A DNA stretch of 64,000 bases from Branchiostoma floridae. Its lineage: Eukaryota; Chordata; Leptocardii; Amphioxiformes; Branchiostomatidae. A program made the translations under genes and the position numbers. The stretch lies in the NCBI RefSeq assembly GCF_000003815.2, contig NC_049988.1, forward strand, positions 16,467,808 through 16,531,807, in the 5' to 3' direction. Shown here piece after piece: positions 19,068-43,900 of this stretch (position 1 is its first letter; each line of letters starts with the position of its first letter). The notes beneath the pieces were generated by a model. That model was not told the origin of the DNA. It saw only the letters and a list, made by a program, of their open reading frames with translations, and ran no database searches.

Positions 19068-19768
19068 TCGCGAAACAAAGTCTGATTTCCTTCAAACCAA
19101 CTTGATTGGGTACGGAATAACTTCCTCACATCTCGTATACCCTCTTTTTGTCAAAAAAGCTAAATTTGGCCCTTTGAACCAAAAATAGCAGATTTCAACC
19201 CAAAAATGAGATGTCGACAAACGATGTCCGATTTCCTTCGAACCAACTTTACTGAGTGCGGAATAACTTCCTGACATCTCGTTCACCTTCTTTTTGTCAA
19301 AAAAGCTAAATTTGGCCCTTTGAACCAAAAATAGCAGATTTCAACCCAAAAATGAGATGTCGACAAACGATGTCCGATTTCCTTCGAACCAACTTTATTG
19401 AGTGCGGAATAACTTCCTCACATCTCGTTCACCCTCTTTTTGTCAAAAAAGCTAAATTCGGCCCTTTGAACCAAAAATAGCAGATTTCAACCCAAAGATG
19501 AGATGTCGACAAACGATGTCCAATTTCCTTCGAACCAACTTTACTGAGTGCGGAATAACTTCCTCACATCTCCTTCACCCTCTTTTTGTCAAAAAAGCTA
19601 AATTTGGCCCTTTGAACCAAAAATAGCAGATTTCAACCCAAAAATGAGATGTCGACAAACGATGTCCGATTTCCTTCAAACCAACTTTATTGAGTGCGGA
19701 ATAACTTCCTGTCAAAAAAAAGCTAAATTTGGCCCTTTGAACCAAAAATAGCAGATTTCAACCCATCC
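19068..19768. repeat. 146-bp satellite, about 4.7 units
   Basis: The landmark ACGATGTCC recurs at 19221, 19367, 19513 and 19659, exactly 146 bp apart. Units contain GAGATGTCGACAAACGATG and GGCCCTTTGAACCAAAAATA, with only a few substitutions. The last unit has an internal deletion. Confidence 0.97.
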
Positions 19769-24379: not shown

Positions 24380-26169
24380 TACATGTATGGTATTTGCCTG
24401 GTATAAAGACCAACAAGCCATACATATATTACCTGTATGGTACCTTACCTGTATAACCCACACAACTGCTACCTGTACGGTATCTTACCTGGTCTCCAGA
24501 CAAACAAGCCAAACAACTGCTACCTGTGCGGTACCTACAGTAACCTGGTCTCCAGATCAACAAGCCATACAACTGCTACCTGTACGGTACCTTACCTGGT
24601 CTCCAGACAAACAAGCCATAAAACTGCTACCTGTGCGGTACCTTACCTGGTCTCCAGACCAACAAGCCATACAACTGCTACCTGTACAGTACCTTACCTG
24701 GTCTCCAGATCAACAAGCCATACAACTGCTACCTGTACGGTACCTTACCTGGTCTCCAGACCAACAGGCCATAAAACTGCTACCTGTACGGTACCTTACC
24801 TGGTCTCCAGACCAACAAGCCATACAACTGCTACCTGTACAGTACCTTACCTGGTCTCCAGACCAACAAGCCATCCAACTGCTACCTGTACGGTGCCTTA
24901 CCTGGTCTCCAGACAAGCAAGCCATACAACTGCTACCTGTACAGTACCTTACCTGGTGTCCAGACCAACAGGCCATAAACCTGCTACCTGTACGGTACCT
25001 TACCTGGTCTCCAGACCAACAAGCCATACAACTGCTACCTGTACGGTGCCTTACCTGGTCTCCAGACAAGCAAGCCATACAACTGCTACCTGTACAGTAC
25101 CTTTACCTGGTGTCCAGACCAAAAAGCCCATAAAACCTGCTAACTGTACGGTGCCTTACCTGGTCTCCAGACAAGCAAGCCATACAACTGCTACCTGTAC
25201 AGTACCTTACCTGGTCTCCAGACAAACAAGCCATACAACTGCTACCTGTAGGGTGCCTTCCCTGGTCTCCAGACAAGAAAGCCATACAACTGCTACCTGT
25301 ACAGTACCTTACCTGGTCTCCAGACCAACAAGCCATCCAACTGCTACCTGTACGGTACCTTACCTGGTCTCCAGACAAGAAAGCCATACAACTGCTACCT
25401 GTACGGTGCCTTACCTGATCTCCAGACAAGCAAGCCATACAACTGCTACCTGTACAGTACCTTACCTGGTGTCCAGACCAACAGGCCATAAACCTGCTAC
25501 CTGTACGGTACCTTACCGTGGTCTCCAGACAAACAAGCAATACAGCTGCTACCTGTACAGTACCTTACGTGGTCTCCAGACAAACAAGCCATAAAACTGC
25601 TACCTGTACGGTACCTTACCTGGTCTCCAGACAAACAAGCCATACAGCTGCTACCTGTACAGTACCTTACCTGGTCTCCAGACAAACAAGACATAAAACT
25701 GCTACCTGTGCGGTACCTTACCTGGTCTCCAGACAAACAAGCCATAAAACTGCTACCTGTACGGTGCCTTACCTGGTCTCCAGACAAACAAGCCATAAAA
25801 CTGCTACCTGTACGGTACCTTACCTGGTCTCCAGACCAACAAGCCATAAAACTGCTCCCTGATGGTACCTTACCTGGTGTCCAGACCAACAATCCATACA
25901 GCTGCTACCTGTACAGTACCTTACCTGGTCTCCAGACAAGCAAGACATAAAACTGCTACCTGTGCGGTACCTTACCTGGTGTCCAGACCAACAATCCATA
26001 CAACTGCTACCTGTACGGTACCTTACTGGCCTCCAGACCAACAAGCCATACAACTGATAACTGTACGGTACCTTACCTGGTCTCCAGACCAACAAGCCAT
26101 AAAAGTGCTACCTGTACGGTACCTTCCCTGGTCTCCAGACCAACAAGCCATACAACTGCTACCTGTACA
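24380..26169. repeat. 51-bp minisatellite, about 34 units
   Basis: Unit: CTGGTCTCCAGACAAACAAG, CCATACAACTGCTACC, TGTACGGTACCTTAC. From 24547 onward the spacing is almost always exactly 51, so frames stay open on both strands (17-residue repeats); these are not genes. Two bases in the middle (GACAAAC or GACCAAC, CATACAAC or CATAAAAC) vary between units. The array resumes after an insertion at 26799-26860. On the minus strand each unit contains CAGGTAAG, a consensus splice donor. Confidence 0.97.
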
Positions 26170-26178
26170 GTACATTAC

Positions 26179-26789
26179 TGGTCTGCCTAAACACCACAAA
26201 CGACTCAGAAACACCACAAACGACCACAAACGATCTAATATGCAGTGTATATGGGTCAAAGACCTTGTGTGGCGCTCTGGAGACATTGTTTACACATTTA
26301 TGAATTTAGAAAATGCAGCAAGTCCTACGTATTCACCAGTTATTTCGAGTTAGTCCGCAGGTTTCAAGATCAAAGCGATTCTTTGCCGCCATGTTGGATC
26401 GCCCGTGCTAGGAGTCTGCATGGGGAAGTCCTCGATACCTTCCACGGTTCCATAGACGACAGGATGATAAAACTAAGGACGCTGTTCATAGATTATAGCA
26501 TGACACAACTCTATCATTGTCAACTTATAAAACTTGTATAGTAAGTGTTTTTCAGCCTCATATGCAGGCACGCATTCATTGACAGCGTGCTCAGCCATCG
26601 TGACTGATCTTGAAACCGGCGGATTAACTCGAAATAACTGGTGAATATGTAGGACTTGCTGCATTTCTTAAATTCATAAGTGTGTAAACAATGTCTCCAG
26701 AGCGCAACACAAGGTATTTGACCCATATACACTGCATATTAGAGTCGTTTGTGGTGTTTCTGAGTCGTTTGTGGTGTTTAGGCAGACCC
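26179..26789. mobile_element. 611-bp non-autonomous DNA transposon with 9-bp target duplication, copy A
   Basis: Inserted in the 51-bp minisatellite: GTACATTAC before and GTACCTTAC after, a 9-bp duplication with one change. Ends TGGTCTGCCTAAACACCAC and GTGGTGTTTAGGCAGACCC, with arms of nearly 200 bp (CAAAGACCTTGTG, GCGCTCTGGAGACATTGTTT). The 9-bp duplication suggests a Mutator-like family (inference). Confidence 0.9.
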
Positions 26790-32079: not shown

Positions 32080-34118
32080 ACATAAAACGCAATGCAATAC
32101 CAACTTTTCTTAATCAAATGAGCTGAGATTTGGCTCAAAGTTATAATGAAAAATGTTTCCCTTAATCTGTTGTTCAGATCTGTGTAAGTAAATGAGTCGT
32201 AAGAGGGTGCCATCAACCGTATTGCAATAGCAAGTTCATTTTTTTAAATAAAATGAGTAGAAATTTGACTCAAAGGTAATAAAAACAAATGTCTTGATGA
32301 GACTGAAATGTCGTTCAGGTCTGTAAGAGCGAATGAGTACTAAGAGGGTGCCATAAAACGTAAAACAATAGCAAGTTCAATTTTTTGTTGATAAAATGAG
32401 TTGAAATTTGGCTCAAAGTTATAAAGGAAAATGTCCCCCTTAATCTGTTGTTCAGATCTGTATGACTGAATGAGTAGTAAGAGGGTGCTATAAAACATAA
32501 TGCAATAACAAGCTAATTTCTTGTTGATAAAATGAGTAGATTTTGACTCAAGGTTAATAGAGAAAAATGTCTTCCTGAGACTGAAATGTTTTTCAGGTCT
32601 CTACGAGTAAATGAGTAGTAAGAGAGTGACATAAAATGTAATACAATAGCAAATTCATTTTTTGAAATAAAATGAGTTGAAATTTGGCTCAAATGCGATA
32701 AAGAAAAATGTCTTTCTGAGACTAAAATGCCTTAATTTGTTGCTCAGGTCTGTATACGAGTGAATGAGTAGTGGGAGGGTGACATAGACGTCATGCAATT
32801 ATAGCAAGTTCATTTTGAAAAAAATAAAATGAGTTGGAATTTGGCTCCCAGGTAATAAAGAAAAATGTATTCCTGAGACTGAAATGCCTTATTTGTTGTT
32901 CAGGTCTGTAAGAGCGAATGAGTAGTAAGAGGGTACCATAAAACGTAATGCAATATTAATAGCAAGTTCATTTTTTGTTAATAAGAGGAGTAGAAATTGG
33001 ACTCAAAGGTAATAAAGAAAATGTCTTATTGACACTGAAATGTAGTTCAGGTCTATAAGAGTGAATAAGTACCAAGAGGGTGACATAAAATGTAATACAA
33101 TAGCAAGTTCATTTTTTTTTAAATAAAATGAGTTGAAATTTGGCTTAAATGTAATAAAGTAAAATGTCTTAATGCGACTGTAATGCCTTAATTTGTTGCT
33201 CAGGTTTGTAAGAGCGAATGAGTAGTTATAGTGTAACATAGACGTAATGCAATTATAGCAAGTTCATTTTTTGTTAATAAAATGAGTTGAAATTTGGCTA
33301 AAAGGTAATAAAGAAAAATGTCTTGATAAGACAAAAATGCATTAATTTGTTGTTCAGGTCTGTACGAGTGAATGAGTAGTTAAAGTGTAACATAGACGTA
33401 ATGGAATTATAGCAAGTTCATTTTATGTTAATAAATTGAGTTGCAATTTGGCTCAAATGTGATAAAGAAAAATGTCATGATAAGACAAAAATACATTAAT
33501 TTGTTGTTCAGGTCTGTATGAGCGAATGAGTAGTGAGAGTGTAACATAGACGTAATGCAATTATAGCAAGTTCATTTTATGTTAATAAAATGAGTTGAAA
33601 TTTGGCTCAAATGTAATAAAGTAAAATGTCTTAATGCGACTGAAATGTCTTAATTTGTTGTTCAGGTCTGTAACAGTTAATAATTAGTGAGAGGGTGACA
33701 TAGACGTAATGCAATTATAGCAATTTCATTTTTGTTAATAAAATGAGTTGCAATTTGGCTCAAATGTGATAAAGAAAAATGTCATGATAAGACAAAAATA
33801 CATTAATTTGTTGTTCAGGTCTGTATGAGCGAATGAGTAGTGAGAGTGTAACATAGACGTAATGCAATTATAGCAAGTTCATTTTATGTTAATAAAATGA
33901 GTTGAAATTTGGCTCAAATGTAATAAAGTAAAATGTCTTAATGCGACTGAAATGTCTTAATTTGTTGTTCAGGTCTGTAACAGTTAATAATTAGTGAGAG
34001 GGTGACATAGACGTAATGCAATCATAGCAAGTTCATTTTTTGTTTATAAAATGAGTTGCAATTTGGATCAAATGTGATAAAGAAAATGTCTCCCTGCGAC
34101 TAAAATTCCTTAATCTGT
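32080..34118. repeat. Tandem array with 137-158 bp units, 14 copies
   Basis: CAAGTTCATT (or a near variant) occurs at 32231, 32372, 32509, 32650, 32805, 32963, 33104, 33259, 33413, 33567, 33721, 33874 and 34028. Early units are about 141 bp, later ones 153-155. Units contain AATAAAATGAGTTGAAATTT, GGCTCAAATGTAATAAAG, TTAATTTGTTGTTCAGGTCT and GAATGAGTAGTAAGAG. A roughly 307-bp pair of units is itself duplicated (33560-33870 versus 33870-34028). Confidence 0.96.
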
Positions 34119-34883
34119 TGTAACAACTTGGACGTTCGTAATACGCAATGCGACCAGTAACCTATAGACATATTCATCATTTTGACACGCTCGTAATCTT
34201 AGTCTCTTGCAGTAACTTTAAGTAGATCAGACGGACCTACGTCTCACAGACTTCTAAGGGTGTGATTATCTTGGAATTAATCCGTACAAATATGTACTAC
34301 AAATATCTACTCTTAGAAACATATGTGCCTTTGCCTTTGTATTAGATTTTCAAAGTTTCATTCAATTAAAAAATGGACCTGATATGATACAGATTGCATT
34401 ACTGTCTGACTCGACTGACTCAAGGCATTTGCACTTGTGATTTACTGTGAAGTATTTCGCTCTTAAAGACCTAGAGTCTGTGCTATATCTCTATCTTTAG
34501 ACTGAAATGCGATACGCCCTCTTACTTTGATTTACTCTGAGACCTGCACCTCTTGGCCCTTTTTACTTTTGGCTGAACGTTGAAAAATCGCGTCAAACTT
34601 AGGCCTATAGGGTCACTGTCATTGATTGAAGATCTGTAGTCTTCACCTAACATCTGTACATTGTCGTTTCACCTCTTTACCACTTCACAGGCGGAACGAA
34701 GGATCTACATCCGCCGATAGAATTGAAAGCCAGGTCTTCTTGGTACTTTCGTTTTGAACTGCGAACCCCCACGGCTGGCGAAAGCTTACGTGTGTCCAAT
34801 TTCCTTGACGTATTCACGCAAGACGTTAACGTTGACTCGCTCCATACAAGAATCGTCTTAACGGAACAGGCGTGAGGAAGAAG
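34119..34883. promoter_or_regulatory. Upstream region of the CRF receptor gene
   Basis: No TATA box at a plausible position was seen. 34679-34883 is GC-richer than its surroundings and probably contains the 5' UTR; a possible 3' splice site, CCACTTCACAG, is at 34679-34689. The tandem array ends 765 bases upstream of the start codon. Confidence 0.4.
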
Positions 34884-37900: not shown

Positions 37901-40900
37901 GGAACTTCCTCCATCTCCATCCACTCGCCGTCTTTAATGATGTTCTCGCGACTACAGTTCCGGAAACGATTTCCAGATTAGACCTTTCAGACGAAAATGT
38001 CAGTGTGATTTTGTAGTCTGCGAAACGAGGTCTGGGTCGACAGTCAGCTTATCACTGCCTCACAGCAATACGCGTTAAAAGGGCTACCAATTACAATGTT
38101 AAAGCGCATGTTTAATTCAGTAATTGTTCTCCTTCGTGCTCCTGTTTGCGCAGCTTCTTTAATTGGAGACCCTTTAGAGGCTGCGAATAGCACGAAGATA
38201 ATTCCTCCATTGGTAGATTCCCATTGGGACTATGAAAAGTTACTTTTCTCATGAAAAGTTTGCTAAATTGCCTTGGCAGTAGCACCTAAGAGTAGAAATG
38301 TGATCCGTCAAATGTTGCCAGTTGAATCTATACTAAGATGAGCGGAAAGACTAAACAGAGGCAGTGTATACATCATTTCGATGCGTCGGGACCGTAATCT
38401 CCAAGCAGATCCTACAATGGCAAAAGATAGTACCAAACTGGCCAAAGAGTGTAGTAAGTCAAGAGGTGTACATTTGCCATGTAGCCAAACACACTCCTAA
38501 GCCGGCTTCACTCCTCTGCCAGCTTTTGATACTATCTTATGCTACCGTAGGATCTGCTTGGAGATCTGCTCTGACCGGTGCCCATCTCCGTTTCATAGCC
38601 CTGGGGCCACACTTAGGTCACTACAGCAGGGGGCTAGTCCACTGATAGTGTTTAGCTTCCATACTATTTCTCTTAACAGAGAAAGAAGTATGTACAATTT
38701 TAAAGAGTCTTTGATAATATCTATCTGGAAAAGGCCAGCAGGCAGACCGAGGAAGAGATGGTTACACAAAATCACTGGGATAACCAGAAATGAGGAACCA
38801 AAACATCCAAGCAGTCAGGAAAATGGATGAGGAGAAAACAGAGTGCAAAACGTCCATAAAGGAGCTGACAATGTAAGGTGGTATCTCACTGCACTTGGGG
38901 CACCAGTGCGGCACTGCGGGGTTCGAAAGGGTACTCTTCCACTTTTAGGGACAAAGAACGAATTTTCTTTCGTTTTTTTTTTTGTATTTTGTTGTCTTCT
39001 AAGTCATACTTTTGCGTATCAAACAATATCTATATTATAACACATCGGCGAAAATAACACAACAGTTCCGCAGTGAACGAACCCCGCACTGCCGCATGGA
39101 TGCCCCAAGTGCAGTAAGGTACCATCTTAAAGGCCTTAAAGCACCAGGGTGAGAAGCAGCACCTATAAGGAGTGTCTTTGGTGAGCTTTATGTCTGTAAC
39201 AGTATGACCTTCCTCCTGCAACAGTATCCGATGATTCATCACGTAGCATCAAATTTTTATCCATTCAAAATGAAGTCGAATGTGATATATGACACAAACT
39301 CTGCTTCAAGTCGTAGACATTCAAAAGTGCAAAATCCCATCTCAAGTATTCTGAACAATCACACGGCATAAGTGAAAGCAGCATTGTTAAACGATGTGAT
39401 CAGACTGTTTCATCGTCAATTATCTGCCCTAAGCTGTTCTCGAGGGCAGTGTCTCTTTTCATGCAGGTCTCATCTGGCCACTGTATGCCACAGATAAGGT
39501 GTAACACTCCTGATGAATAATGCAAGCTCTTCTAAAGCTCTAACATGTGAATGTCCTCGTATATATAACGGAACCGAAATTACAAGGGATAGGAAATATG
39601 TCTTCCTGACACCAATAACGGTATTTATGGCTTTGATACGCGCACTTCCTTGATAGTCCAAATTAAAGATTTATGAGATAAGATCCTCGTGCATGAAGTG
39701 CAGTACGAGAGGTAACGTAATATACAGTTCCGTAATAAATTATTAAGTTCCGTAATAAATGATAAAGCTTTGATTTGTGAAAACCGTCGTAAATATAAAT
39801 AAACCTGAATAAGAAGGAATTGATTAGTTGCCGATGCCAATAATAGCAACGGCAATGACAGCATGATCAATGATGTACTCTTTTTGATAGTCCAGATAAT
39901 AGAAAAGTGACATGATCAATTTACTTTAATGCAGATGAAATGTAACTCATTTTACAGTCTCCAAATATCAACTAGGAGTAGGAGTATATTCTGTAAAACT
40001 TTATCCTGCTCTTTTTTATAGTCGAGATAATAATGCAGACGAAATGTAACTCATTTCATAGTCCCAAACATCTCCTAAATGTAGGTGTAGGATTACATTC
40101 CGCAAACTTACCTTAATTTTAACTAATGTTCAACAAAAGTGCACATACAGCTAGGTTTGCAACAGCTGAAATTGAAAGTTTAGTTCAATTTAGTTTCTCC
40201 TCTGGGGGTGACACCAGGATTTCCTTAAAGAAATGCTCGTCCACATCGAGTCCTGTGACCTTCATAAGTAACTTCTTAAGTGTCAAGGAAGGACGACCAT
40301 GCCTACGATGGTCGTCCGTTTGCAAGACAGTATGATTTGGTGATGTTGATCTTGTGTAACTTCCTAAGTGTCAAGGAAGGGCGACCATGCCTACGACGCT
40401 CGTCCGTTTGCAAGACAGTATGATTTGGTGATGTTGTTCTTGTGCCCGCAGCTACCTGCGTGGACTTGCTATGGACAGTCCTTGCGGACGAGGCAGTACA
40501 CATTGCAGGACATCAAGAAGCTGATCTGCCTCAGAAAGCACGTGGACACTCGCACAGATTCTGTCGGTAAGTTTATAATCAGTATGAGCAGTAGTCATCT
40601 GCCGAATGTGAATGTTGAGTCATTTACTTGATGAAATCATTGAGAAACAAGGATTGGTAAACAAGTCAACATTGTGTTCAGTAATAAGAGATTACACTTA
40701 CAGTTAAAGGTATATTAGGATATTTTACAGTGTAAGGGTACATTGTTAAGATAACAATATGTAATATACCTCCCTATCACCTATATCATTCGCAGCCAAT
40801 ATTGTATGTATAGACTATAGAGCCTGAAAGTGGTTTGTACTATTTCTGTGTTATCAGCAAGTAGTCTGACACAACATTCTGGCTTTGTCCCACTATGTGT

Positions 40901-43900
40901 TTTGTTTTCATATGCATATCCTAGGGTCTGCATCTACAGTTACAGTATTACTAGTAGATGTTACTTTATAGCCAGTGTCTTGTACAATATACTTACGTTT
41001 GCCTTACATTGTAACCGTTGTAAACTTGACTGACTTCTACATGTCCAGGTGAGTGGACAACATACGTCTTGGTTTAACCGTACAGCATGGGGACCACCAT
41101 TACGTCATATTCACGTGACTGCAAACACTCTATACTATAGTATACCTTACCCATTCTACCTGCCCTGGCTTGATGTGTAATTCCTCCTGGGATGGCCTGA
41201 CGTGCATTCCAAGACAGTTTGCAACATGCTTCTTGGTTTAACCGTGAAGTATGGAGGACCACCTTTGCGTAATAATCACATTGTATGCTGTACTCAGTAC
41301 CTGCCCAGGTGTGACATGTAACTCCACCTGGGACGGCCTGACGTTTTGCTTGTTTGTTTGATTGTTTGTTTATGCTGTATTTACCTGCCAAGGTGTAATA
41401 TGTAACTCATCCTGGGACGGCCTGACGTTTTGCTTGTTTGTTTGATTGTTTGTTTATGCTGTATTTACCTGCCAAGGTGTAATATGTAACTCCACCTGGG
41501 ACGGCCTGACGTTTTGCTTGTTTGTTTGATTGTTTGTTTATGCTGTATTTACCTGCCAAGGTGTAATATGTAACTCCACCTGGGACGGCCTGACGTTTTG
41601 CTTGTTTGTTTGATTGTTTGTTTATGCTGTACTTACCTGCCCAGGTGTAATATGTAACTCCACCTGGGACGGCCTGACGTTTTGCTTGTTTGTTTGATTG
41701 TTTGTTTATGCTGTATTTACCTGCCCAGGTGTGAAGTGTAACTCCACCTGGGACGGCCTGACGTTTGGCTTGTTTGTTTGATTGTTTGTTTATGCTGTAT
41801 TTACCTGCCAAGGTGTAATATGTAACTCATCCTGGGACGGCCTGACGTTTTGCTTGTTTGTTTGATTGTTTGTTTATGCTGTACTTACCTGCCCAGGTGT
41901 GAAGTGTAACTCCACCTGGGACGGCCTGACGTTTGGCTTGTTTGTTTGATTGTTTGTTTATGCTGTATTTACCTGCCAAGGTGTAATATGTAACTCATCC
42001 TGGGACGGCCTGACGTTTGGCTTGTTTGTTTGATTGTTTGTTTATGCTGTATTTACCTGCCCAGGTGTGAAGTGTAACTCCACCTGGGACGGCCTGACGT
42101 TTTGCTTGTTTGTTTGATTGTTTGTTTATGCTGTATTTACCTGCCAAGGTGTAATATGTAACTCCACCTGGGACGGCCTGACGTTTTGCTTGTTTGTTTG
42201 ATTGTTTGTTTATGCTGTACTTACCTGCCCAGGTGTGAAGTGTAACTCCACCTGGGACGGCCTGACGTTTGGCTTGTTTGTTTGATTGTTTGTTTATGCT
42301 GTATTTACCTGCCAAGGTGTAATATGTAACTCATCCTGGGACGGCCTGACGTTTGGCTTGTTTGTTTGATTGTTTGTTTATGCTGTATTTACCTGCCCAG
42401 GTGTGAAGTGTAACTCCACCTGGGACGGCCTGACGTTTTGCTTGTTTGTTTGATTGTTTGTTTATGCTGTATTTACCTGCCAAGGTTATATTGTAACTCC
42501 ACCTGGGACGGCCGGACGTTTTGCTTGTTGTTGGATGGTTTGTTTATGCGTATTTTACCGCCCAAGGTGTATTATGTAACTCCACCTGGGACGGCCGGAC
42601 GTTTTGCTTGTTTGTTGGATGGTTTGTTTATGCTGTACTTACCTGTCAAGGTGTAATATGTACTTCCACCTGGGACGGCCTGACGTTTTGCTTGTTTGTT
42701 TGATTGTTTGTTTATGCTGTATTTACCTGCCAAGGTGTAATATGTAACTCCACCTGGGACGGCCTGACGTTTTGTTTGTTTGATTGTTTGTTTGTTTGTT
42801 TGTTTATGCTATACTTACTTACCTAGGTGTGACGTGTAACTCCACCTGGGACGGCCTGACCTGCTGGCCGCCCACTCCGGCGGGTAGAGTCGTGCACATG
42901 TCCTGCTTCCCGGAGCTCCGCGGAATCCCGTACGACACCACCGGTAAGTATATGGAATACATAACATACAAAACAAACAAACAAACAAACAAACAAAATG
43001 ACCTGACGTGCTGGCCGTCCACCCCTGCCGGGAGAGTCGTGCACATGTCCCGCTTATCGGAGCTCCGCGGCATCCCGTACGACACCAGCGGTAAGATCAT
43101 GGAAAACATAACATCCAAAACAAACAAACAAACAAACAAACAAACAAACAAAGTGTTATGTTAGCATGAAAGCTCATCTGTGTTGGTACATGTCCTGCGG
43201 TAAGCTCATGGAAAACATAATGTACGTTAAATCATGATAATAGTAATAATGATGATGATGATAAGCTCATGGAGAACTTAAACATACATTCATCAAATAG
43301 TAATAATAGTGATTATGATGATGATGATGATGATAATGATGATAATGATGATGATGATGACGATGATGACGACAATGATGATGATGATAATAATAATGAC
43401 ATTTAGTTATTGCAGGTTGATGCCCGAAGGCTCCTTGCAAATAAAACAATTGAAAGTAAAGGCTTGTAACTGTAAAGTAAAGAAGGAAAATGGTAATTAT
43501 AGATAAATCAGGGAAATAGCATCTATTCTGAATCTTCCTCTACTTATACTTTTCAATAGTTCAATAACAAATTCAATAATTTATTGAATTAGATTTATTG
43601 CATGTTCATACCAGAAACTTACGTATACATTGAGCTCCTGTTAAGGTAGTGCAGAGCCTAAAGGTGCGCTCCCACCGCACTTGTGTCAAGCTTGCGTCAC
43701 TGTGGGATTTGAAAGTTACTCTACGAATTTCAGAGATAAAGAACGAATTTTCTTTCTTTTTGTGTATTTTGTCGTCTTCTAAGTGATACTCTTACGAATT
43801 ACGCAATATCTGAATCATAAGAAAAATCGGAGAAAACGACAAACAGTGACGCAGTGAACGAACCCCGCAATGACGCAAGCTTGACACAAGTGCGGTGGGA

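What the first reader, a model, noticed from the sequence alone, without database searches (positions are those of the whole stretch)
41157..42943. An 84-bp minisatellite built from the gene's own exon 3 acceptor and coding start: 18 decoy exons
The sequence shows 18 tandem units, each with a 3' splice-like AG and the codons for CNSTWDGLT, the strictly constrained start of the hormone-binding domain. They run right up to the real exon 3. In the receptor frame each decoy opens V(K/I)[14 protein letters not shown] and then hits TGA. A spliceosome scanning from intron 2 meets decoy acceptors before the true one, so this may set the ratio of full-length to truncated receptor, or act as a length-variable splicing regulator. 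The 84-bp length (a multiple of 3) and three-unit higher-order repeats point to recent unequal exchange. I know of no comparable case in a CRF receptor.
Basis: seen in the sequence. Interest (0 to 1): 0.9.

Follow-up and report, generated by a model that had tools for sequence, protein, structure and literature searches.

The report
Splice-boundary minisatellite in amphioxus receptor gene
A lancelet stress-hormone receptor gene carries 18 tandem copies of the start of its own third coding exon, a striking example of a repeat type already described in lancelets and most likely a by-product of DNA duplication, not a proven splicing switch.

Summary
The array is real. 18 tandem units (13 distinct; 84 bp, except one of 82 and one of 92) start at 41309 and run to the true exon 3 at 42827-42943. 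Each holds about 34 bp of the exon 3 start, a TTTG-rich filler and the end of intron 2 with an AG. All 18 keep the AG, 7 as CAG and 11 as AAG. All 18 reach a stop before true exon 3, 15 of them after 17 residues. The higher order is two- or four-unit, not three-unit.
The kind is known. Tandem repeats across exon-intron boundaries in amphioxus are called "mirages" (globin paper, section read; PGBD5 paper), and reported RT-PCR suggests normal splicing. This is a large new member, in a CRF-receptor-like gene.
I find no evidence for splicing regulation; no RNA is held here to test it. Best reading: a passive mirage, with the true exon chosen by its strong donor.

The parts
40452..40566 (+). Exon 2 of the CRF-receptor-like gene, donor GT at 40567, ends in phase 1
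41168..41206 (+). Old diverged copy of the exon 3 start ([13 protein letters not shown]); acceptor position reads TG
41309..42826 (+). Array of 18 tandem units (84 bp; unit 15 is 82, unit 18 is 92): about 34 bp of exon 3 start, TTTG-rich filler, intron 2 end with AG
41729..42409 (+). Stretch where CAG|GTGTGA units recur every 168 bp (41729, 41897, 42065, 42233, 42401): each is acceptor-like and weakly donor-like, so 168-nt decoy exons are conceivable
42485..42650 (+). Units 15 and 16 with clustered changes (several T to G) and a 2-bp deficit; possible sequence error
42771..42805 (+). TTTG tract upstream of the true acceptor, complementary to the AAAC tracts of intron 3
42827..42943 (+). True exon 3 (117 bp, start of the hormone-receptor domain), donor GT at 42944
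42971..42997 (+). First AAAC tract, in intron 3
43002..43090 (+). Partial duplicate of the 3' part of exon 3 (78 of 89 bases identical), in frame, one cysteine changed to arginine; weaker donor at 43091
43118..43152 (+). Second AAAC tract, after the duplicate

Best explanation
It is a 'mirage' minisatellite. A stretch spanning the end of intron 2 and the first ~34 bp of exon 3 was duplicated in tandem with a TTTG-rich filler, then multiplied and homogenised by unequal exchange (inferred from the unit pattern). The decoy acceptors are by-products: the transcript normally joins exon 2 to the true exon 3, because only that acceptor is followed within ~120 nt by a strong donor, so only it is defined as an exon (inferred). 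Occasional use of a decoy gives an early stop (shown from the sequence) and the message is probably destroyed (inferred).
For: Local origin: away from the locus only TTTG/AAAC tract pieces match (capped search). Unequal exchange: identical units at distances of 2, 4, 6 and 7 units, lag-2 and lag-4 similarity, and a last unit (18) that differs from all others by 14-27 columns. No sign of constraint on the decoys' coding part: in units 1-14 the first 38 columns hold 5 variable ones, the other 46 hold 3. 11 of 18 acceptors are AAG; that AAG is disfavoured is recalled. Exon 3's donor scores 6.4, the best in-array donor 3.9. All 18 decoys give a stop before exon 3. The HRM exon of the adjacent opposite-strand paralog has no tandem repeat on it. 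Other amphioxus genes carry such structures and are reported to splice normally.
Against: 6 of 18 decoy acceptors score above the true one, and all lie nearer exon 2. No RNA data are held here, so exclusive use of the true exon is not shown. Homogenisation can hide or mimic constraint, so the lack of constraint is weak evidence. In 77 sampled exon loci only this one has a repeat reaching into the coding match, so such arrays are not so common that this one can be waved off as background.
Confidence: 0.72

Rival explanations
1. Decoy-exon regulator: units with CAG|GTGTGA act as weak exons (acceptor plus donor, 168 nt apart) that engage the spliceosome and slow or lower intron 2 removal, so array length tunes receptor output.
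For: Five CAG|GTGTGA units at 168-nt spacing score 2.9-3.7 as acceptor and 3.9 as donor. Multiple weak splice sites inside a retained intron are how the decoy exon of human OGT is described (passages).
Against: Published amphioxus mirages are reported not to disturb splicing. The donors lack the usual base at +4. No retention data. No sequence constraint on the decoys visible.
Confidence: 0.13
2. RNA hairpin clamp: TTTG in intron 2 and AAAC in intron 3 pair, close exon 3 in a loop and promote its skipping or circularisation. Exon 3 is 117 nt, so skipping keeps frame.
For: 42730-43010 folds at -109.1 kcal/mol, z -7.35, 0 of 200 shuffles as good. The duplex of the true pre-acceptor with the intron 3 start is -48.3; 0 of 1509 random 60-mers from other loci reach this, and 1 of 1509 reaches -34.5, the level that 15 of 18 decoys reach. 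Mean unpaired probability of the donor is 0.11.
Against: The pairing rests on the low-complexity tracts. Without the AAAC tract the true site's energy is reached by 34 and the usual decoy energy by 130 of 1509 random 60-mers. TTTG/AAAC tracts occur at many other places in this genome. No relatives were available to test conservation.
Confidence: 0.08
3. Assembly artefact: the copy number, or the whole array, is inflated or collapsed.
For: Units 15 and 16 look noisy. Tandem arrays are easily mis-assembled; the globin paper reconstructed one mirage from trace data because the draft version appeared aberrant (passage, cut off in the output).
Against: 13 of 18 units are distinct and the order is not a simple copied block. 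The downstream duplicate and the old copy show independent events of the same kind. One search found no second copy of the locus.
Confidence: 0.05

Closest known systems
Amphioxus 'mirage' minisatellite of globin gene BflGb6 (PMC3087553, section 16 read)
   Same: Tandem duplicates of the 3' end of an intron plus the 5' part of the next exon; AG/GT signals in many units; inner units homogenised, cluster edges not
   Different: BflGb6 has 6 or 3 units of 150-160 bp by haplotype; here 18 units of 84 bp, in a different gene family
Globin gene BflGb9 mirage (same paper)
   Same: Duplicate of an exon's 3' boundary (157 bp), as in the downstream copy here
   Different: Here both boundaries of the same exon are duplicated
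Adh3 and troponin C mirages (known only through PMC3087553 and PMC3902484; originals not read)
   Same: Splice-boundary repeats reported not to give aberrant mRNA; Adh3 reported somatically unstable
   Different: Other genes; Adh3 units reported as 10-72 bp
Lancelet PGBD5 repeats (PMC3902484, passages and section 17)
   Same: Imperfect 60-bp and 108-bp tandem repeats at splice sites, with copy numbers that differ between genome sources
   Different: 2-7 units
Decoy exon of human OGT intron 4 (PMC12017769, passages)
   Same: Weak acceptors and donors inside an intron
   Different: Shown by experiment to control intron detention; single decoy, not a minisatellite

Membership tests
Amphioxus mirage minisatellite | Tandem repeat unit spans an exon-intron boundary | tested here: met
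   18 units, each with intron 2 end, AG and exon 3 start
Amphioxus mirage minisatellite | Units lie next to the real exon in the same gene | tested here: met
   Array abuts exon 3 at 42827; away from the locus only tract pieces match
Amphioxus mirage minisatellite | Inner units homogenised, edge units divergent | tested here: inconclusive
   Units 2-14 differ from one another by 0-8 columns and unit 18 from all others by 14-27, but edge unit 1 differs from units 2-14 by only 2-6, and units 15 and 16, not at the edge, are divergent too
Amphioxus mirage minisatellite | Copy number varies between haplotypes or cells | not testable with these tools
   One assembly only; one search found one copy of the locus
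Amphioxus mirage minisatellite | Normal mRNA splicing despite the repeats | not testable with these tools
   No RNA data
Amphioxus mirage minisatellite | Host is a cephalochordate | tested here: inconclusive
CRF receptor gene (class B1 GPCR) | Hormone receptor domain and 7tm_2 matches on successive exons | tested here: met
   HRM 66.9 bits on a joined translation of exons 2, 3 and part of 4; 7tm_2 51.3 and 36.6 bits on two further exons
CRF receptor gene (class B1 GPCR) | Closest solved relatives are CRF receptors | tested here: met
   Best chains CRFR2 1u34 (E 1.6e-14) and, for CRFR1, 2l27 (3e-13), ahead of calcitonin receptor 5ii0 (1.9e-8); no receptor tree was built
Decoy exon (intron retention) | Paired weak acceptor and donor inside the intron | tested here: met
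   CAG|GTGTGA units at 168-nt spacing, by a recalled generic matrix
Decoy exon (intron retention) | Intron is retained and depends on the decoy | not testable with these tools
   No RNA data or experiment

The most novel reading that the evidence does not exclude
The array is a length-variable splicing rheostat. Repeated weak decoy exons (CAG|GTGTGA every 168 nt), with TTTG arms that can pair with the AAAC docks beside exon 3's donor, compete with the true acceptor, so germline or somatic copy number sets how much full-length receptor is made against truncated or exon-3-skipped messages.
Probability: 0.07. Interest if true: 0.8.

Novelty: new member of a known kind. Interest (0 to 1): 0.36.

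Why it matters
Mirages were reported in a handful of amphioxus genes and proposed as a source of new introns. An 18-unit case in a hormone receptor, with both boundaries of one exon duplicated, is a good natural test of how a spliceosome ignores near-identical decoy acceptors and of how such repeats arise. If the decoys were used, a hypervariable repeat would set hormone-receptor dosage.

Tried and rejected
Rejected: a dispersed repeat or transposon (one search finds only tract pieces away from the locus). Rejected: three-unit higher-order repeat. Thought weak: recursive splicing through the decoys; joining exon 2 to a unit leaves TCG|GTGTGA (score 0.2) or TCG|GTGTAA (-3.6). Considered: a transposon-like insertion with CCTGAC(GT) on both sides, because the upstream units stop matching exon 3 at exon position 34 and the downstream duplicate begins at the same motif; two ordinary tandem duplications explain it too, and I did not test it further. 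Considered: units mimic the U1 RNA 5' end (recalled). TA[CT]TTACCTG occurs 16 times in the array, not elsewhere in the window, and 0 times on the given strand of 253,833 bp of other loci; one founding event, multiplied, explains this, and pairing with the donor part alone is not unusual.

Controls and their limits: the 'near-acceptor' set mixes orientations, because minus-strand loci were not turned (seen), and the random set held N; I dropped both and used the 1509 N-free 60-mers. One search cut unit 15 one base too early; one search repeats it in the right register and replaces its counts (13 distinct units, not 14). The repeat survey covers 77 loci: 17 of 17 HRM, the best 30 of 134 7tm_2 and the best 30 of 142 myosin matches; 6 contain N. 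It is biased to strong, partly single-exon matches and cannot give a genome rate. With 40 nt added on each side, 3 of 77 have a repeat near the match (this locus, L017, L058); in L017 and L058 it stops outside the match. A positive control on the published globin mirage was planned and not obtained.

Paper searches for comparable cases and background. In their listings I saw no mirage in a CRF receptor; the library holds only openly licensed papers and the listings are capped. The amphioxus GPCR paper (PMC2246102, passages) says that CRF-group receptors are present. The C. elegans minisatellite paper (PMC4039745, passages) links one intronic minisatellite to multiple alternative splicing; the amphioxus huntingtin paper (PMC2206037, passages) mentions tandem repeats only as an assembly problem.

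Full report
What is there. The window lies at C10:16467808-16531807 of a 513-Mb genome, taken to be Branchiostoma floridae from its size (recalled). TRF finds a period-84 array at 41298-42860, 18.5 copies, score 2567. In the register of the exon there are 18 units with exon-like starts from 41309 to 42735, followed by the true exon 3 at 42827; 13 of 18 are distinct, and all are 84 bp except unit 15 (82) and unit 18 (92). Each matches the exon 3 start for about 34 bp with one to three mismatches (three units compared), then has a TTTG-rich stretch and an intron 2 end. Outside the regular array, at core 41188, is an older copy with TG in place of the acceptor AG.

The gene. A joined translation of exons 2, 3 and part of 4 hits the hormone receptor domain (66.9 bits), and two further exons hit 7tm_2. 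The best solved relatives are CRF receptors 2 and 1. Exon 3 is one of 17 HRM matches in the genome at E up to 0.01. A further HRM match lies about 53 kb away on the other strand; 9.9 kb around it hold five small tandem repeats, none on the match.

Reading consequences. With exon 2 joined to each unit, 15 of 18 units stop after 17 residues and the other three after 30, 31 and 45; all 18 stop before exon 3. All keep AG: 7 CAG, 11 AAG; the true site is TAG. With a recalled generic matrix, 6 of 18 decoy acceptors score 2.9-3.7, the first unit 0.8, the true site 2.1, and ten AAG sites between -0.3 and 0; the unit at 42485 was scored one base out of register and is left out. Donor-like sites scoring at least 2 in the array are six CAG|GTGTGA at 3.9; exon 2's donor scores 4.9 and exon 3's 6.4. 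These scores are rough: the matrix was not trained on this species. They also cut against the passive reading, since several decoys look no worse than the true acceptor.

Evolution. Units 6, 8 and 12 are identical, as are 4 and 11, 9 and 13, and 10 and 14. Mean differences are lowest at lags 2 and 4 (shuffle p 0.021 and 0.016), not 3 (p 0.69). In units 1-14, 5 of the first 38 columns and 3 of the other 46 vary, so nothing suggests that the decoys' coding part is being kept. Units 15 and 16 carry clustered changes that may be errors.

The other edge. TRF also reports a 147-bp, two-copy repeat at 42855-43144: the 3' part of exon 3, its donor and the AAAC tract are duplicated once. The copy matches in 78 of 89 bases, with 6 synonymous and 5 amino-acid-changing codons, one of them cysteine to arginine. 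It stays in frame with exon 3; its donor scores 3.8. The lost cysteine suggests that 42827-42943 is the working exon. The upstream units stop matching, and this copy begins, at the same exon motif (CCTGAC), which is noted but untested.

RNA structure. TTTG and AAAC tracts are inverted repeats around exon 3. The exon with flanks folds at -109.1 kcal/mol, z -7.35. The duplex between the true pre-acceptor and the start of intron 3 reaches -48.3, against a minimum of -36.3 in 1509 random 60-mers; 15 of 18 decoys reach -34.5 to -36.3. Without the AAAC tract the advantage nearly vanishes (34 of 1509 as good as the true site). So a stem is possible, but it is owed to simple repeats that occur at many places in this genome.

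How special. Among 77 exon loci of three families, one (this) has a direct repeat reaching into the coding match; segments of the same loci 700-1300 nt away have repeats in 4-11 of 77. Repeats are thus commoner outside exons, as expected; this case is uncommon in the sample, but the kind is published.

What is known. Ebner et al. 2010 (PMC3087553, section 16 read) describe tandem duplications of intron 3' end plus exon 5' part in BflGb6 (6 and 3 units by haplotype) and of an exon's 3' boundary in BflGb9, call them mirages after Adh3, say that the data suggest regular splicing is not disturbed, and propose them as a source of new introns. The PGBD5 paper (PMC3902484, passages, section 17) adds PGBD5 and names Adh and TnC. 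The original Adh paper is not held. The array meets the two structural features of a mirage; divergence of the edges is met at one edge only; haplotype variation and splicing could not be tested, and the host species is inferred.

Mechanism. Best supported: a passive mirage, with the true exon picked by exon definition (0.72). Shown: array, frame, stops, site sequences. Inferred: exclusive use of the true site, decay of decoy messages, unequal exchange. Rivals: decoy-exon regulation (0.13), hairpin clamp (0.08), assembly artefact (0.05). The finding is a large, clean new member of a known kind; the regulatory claim remains open and is directly testable with RNA reads.

Noticed in passing
window 24458-26184: A second long minisatellite, 51-bp unit, 33.7 copies, whose unit holds CTTACCTG and TCTCCAG; in the six frames 5 to 30 stops, so not a long open frame.
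   Followed up: partly
window 40268-40444: An 88-bp two-copy tandem repeat (94% matches) ending just before the acceptor of exon 2 (exon starts 40452): a near-boundary duplication at the neighbouring exon.
   Followed up: no
window 32105-34121: Tandem array reported with 154-, 307- and 461-bp periods.
   Followed up: no
window 19073-19710: 146-bp unit, 4.4 copies, 94% matches.
   Followed up: no
C10:16555044-16563585 of the own genome (L009, L056): HRM and 7tm_2 matches of a second class B receptor on the opposite strand next to this gene, without a tandem repeat on its HRM match.
   Followed up: partly
L058, from -540 to -25 relative to the myosin match: A repeat array (offsets mostly stepping by 18 bp) ending 25 nt before a myosin-head match that itself contains stops; not checked for a splice boundary.
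   Followed up: no
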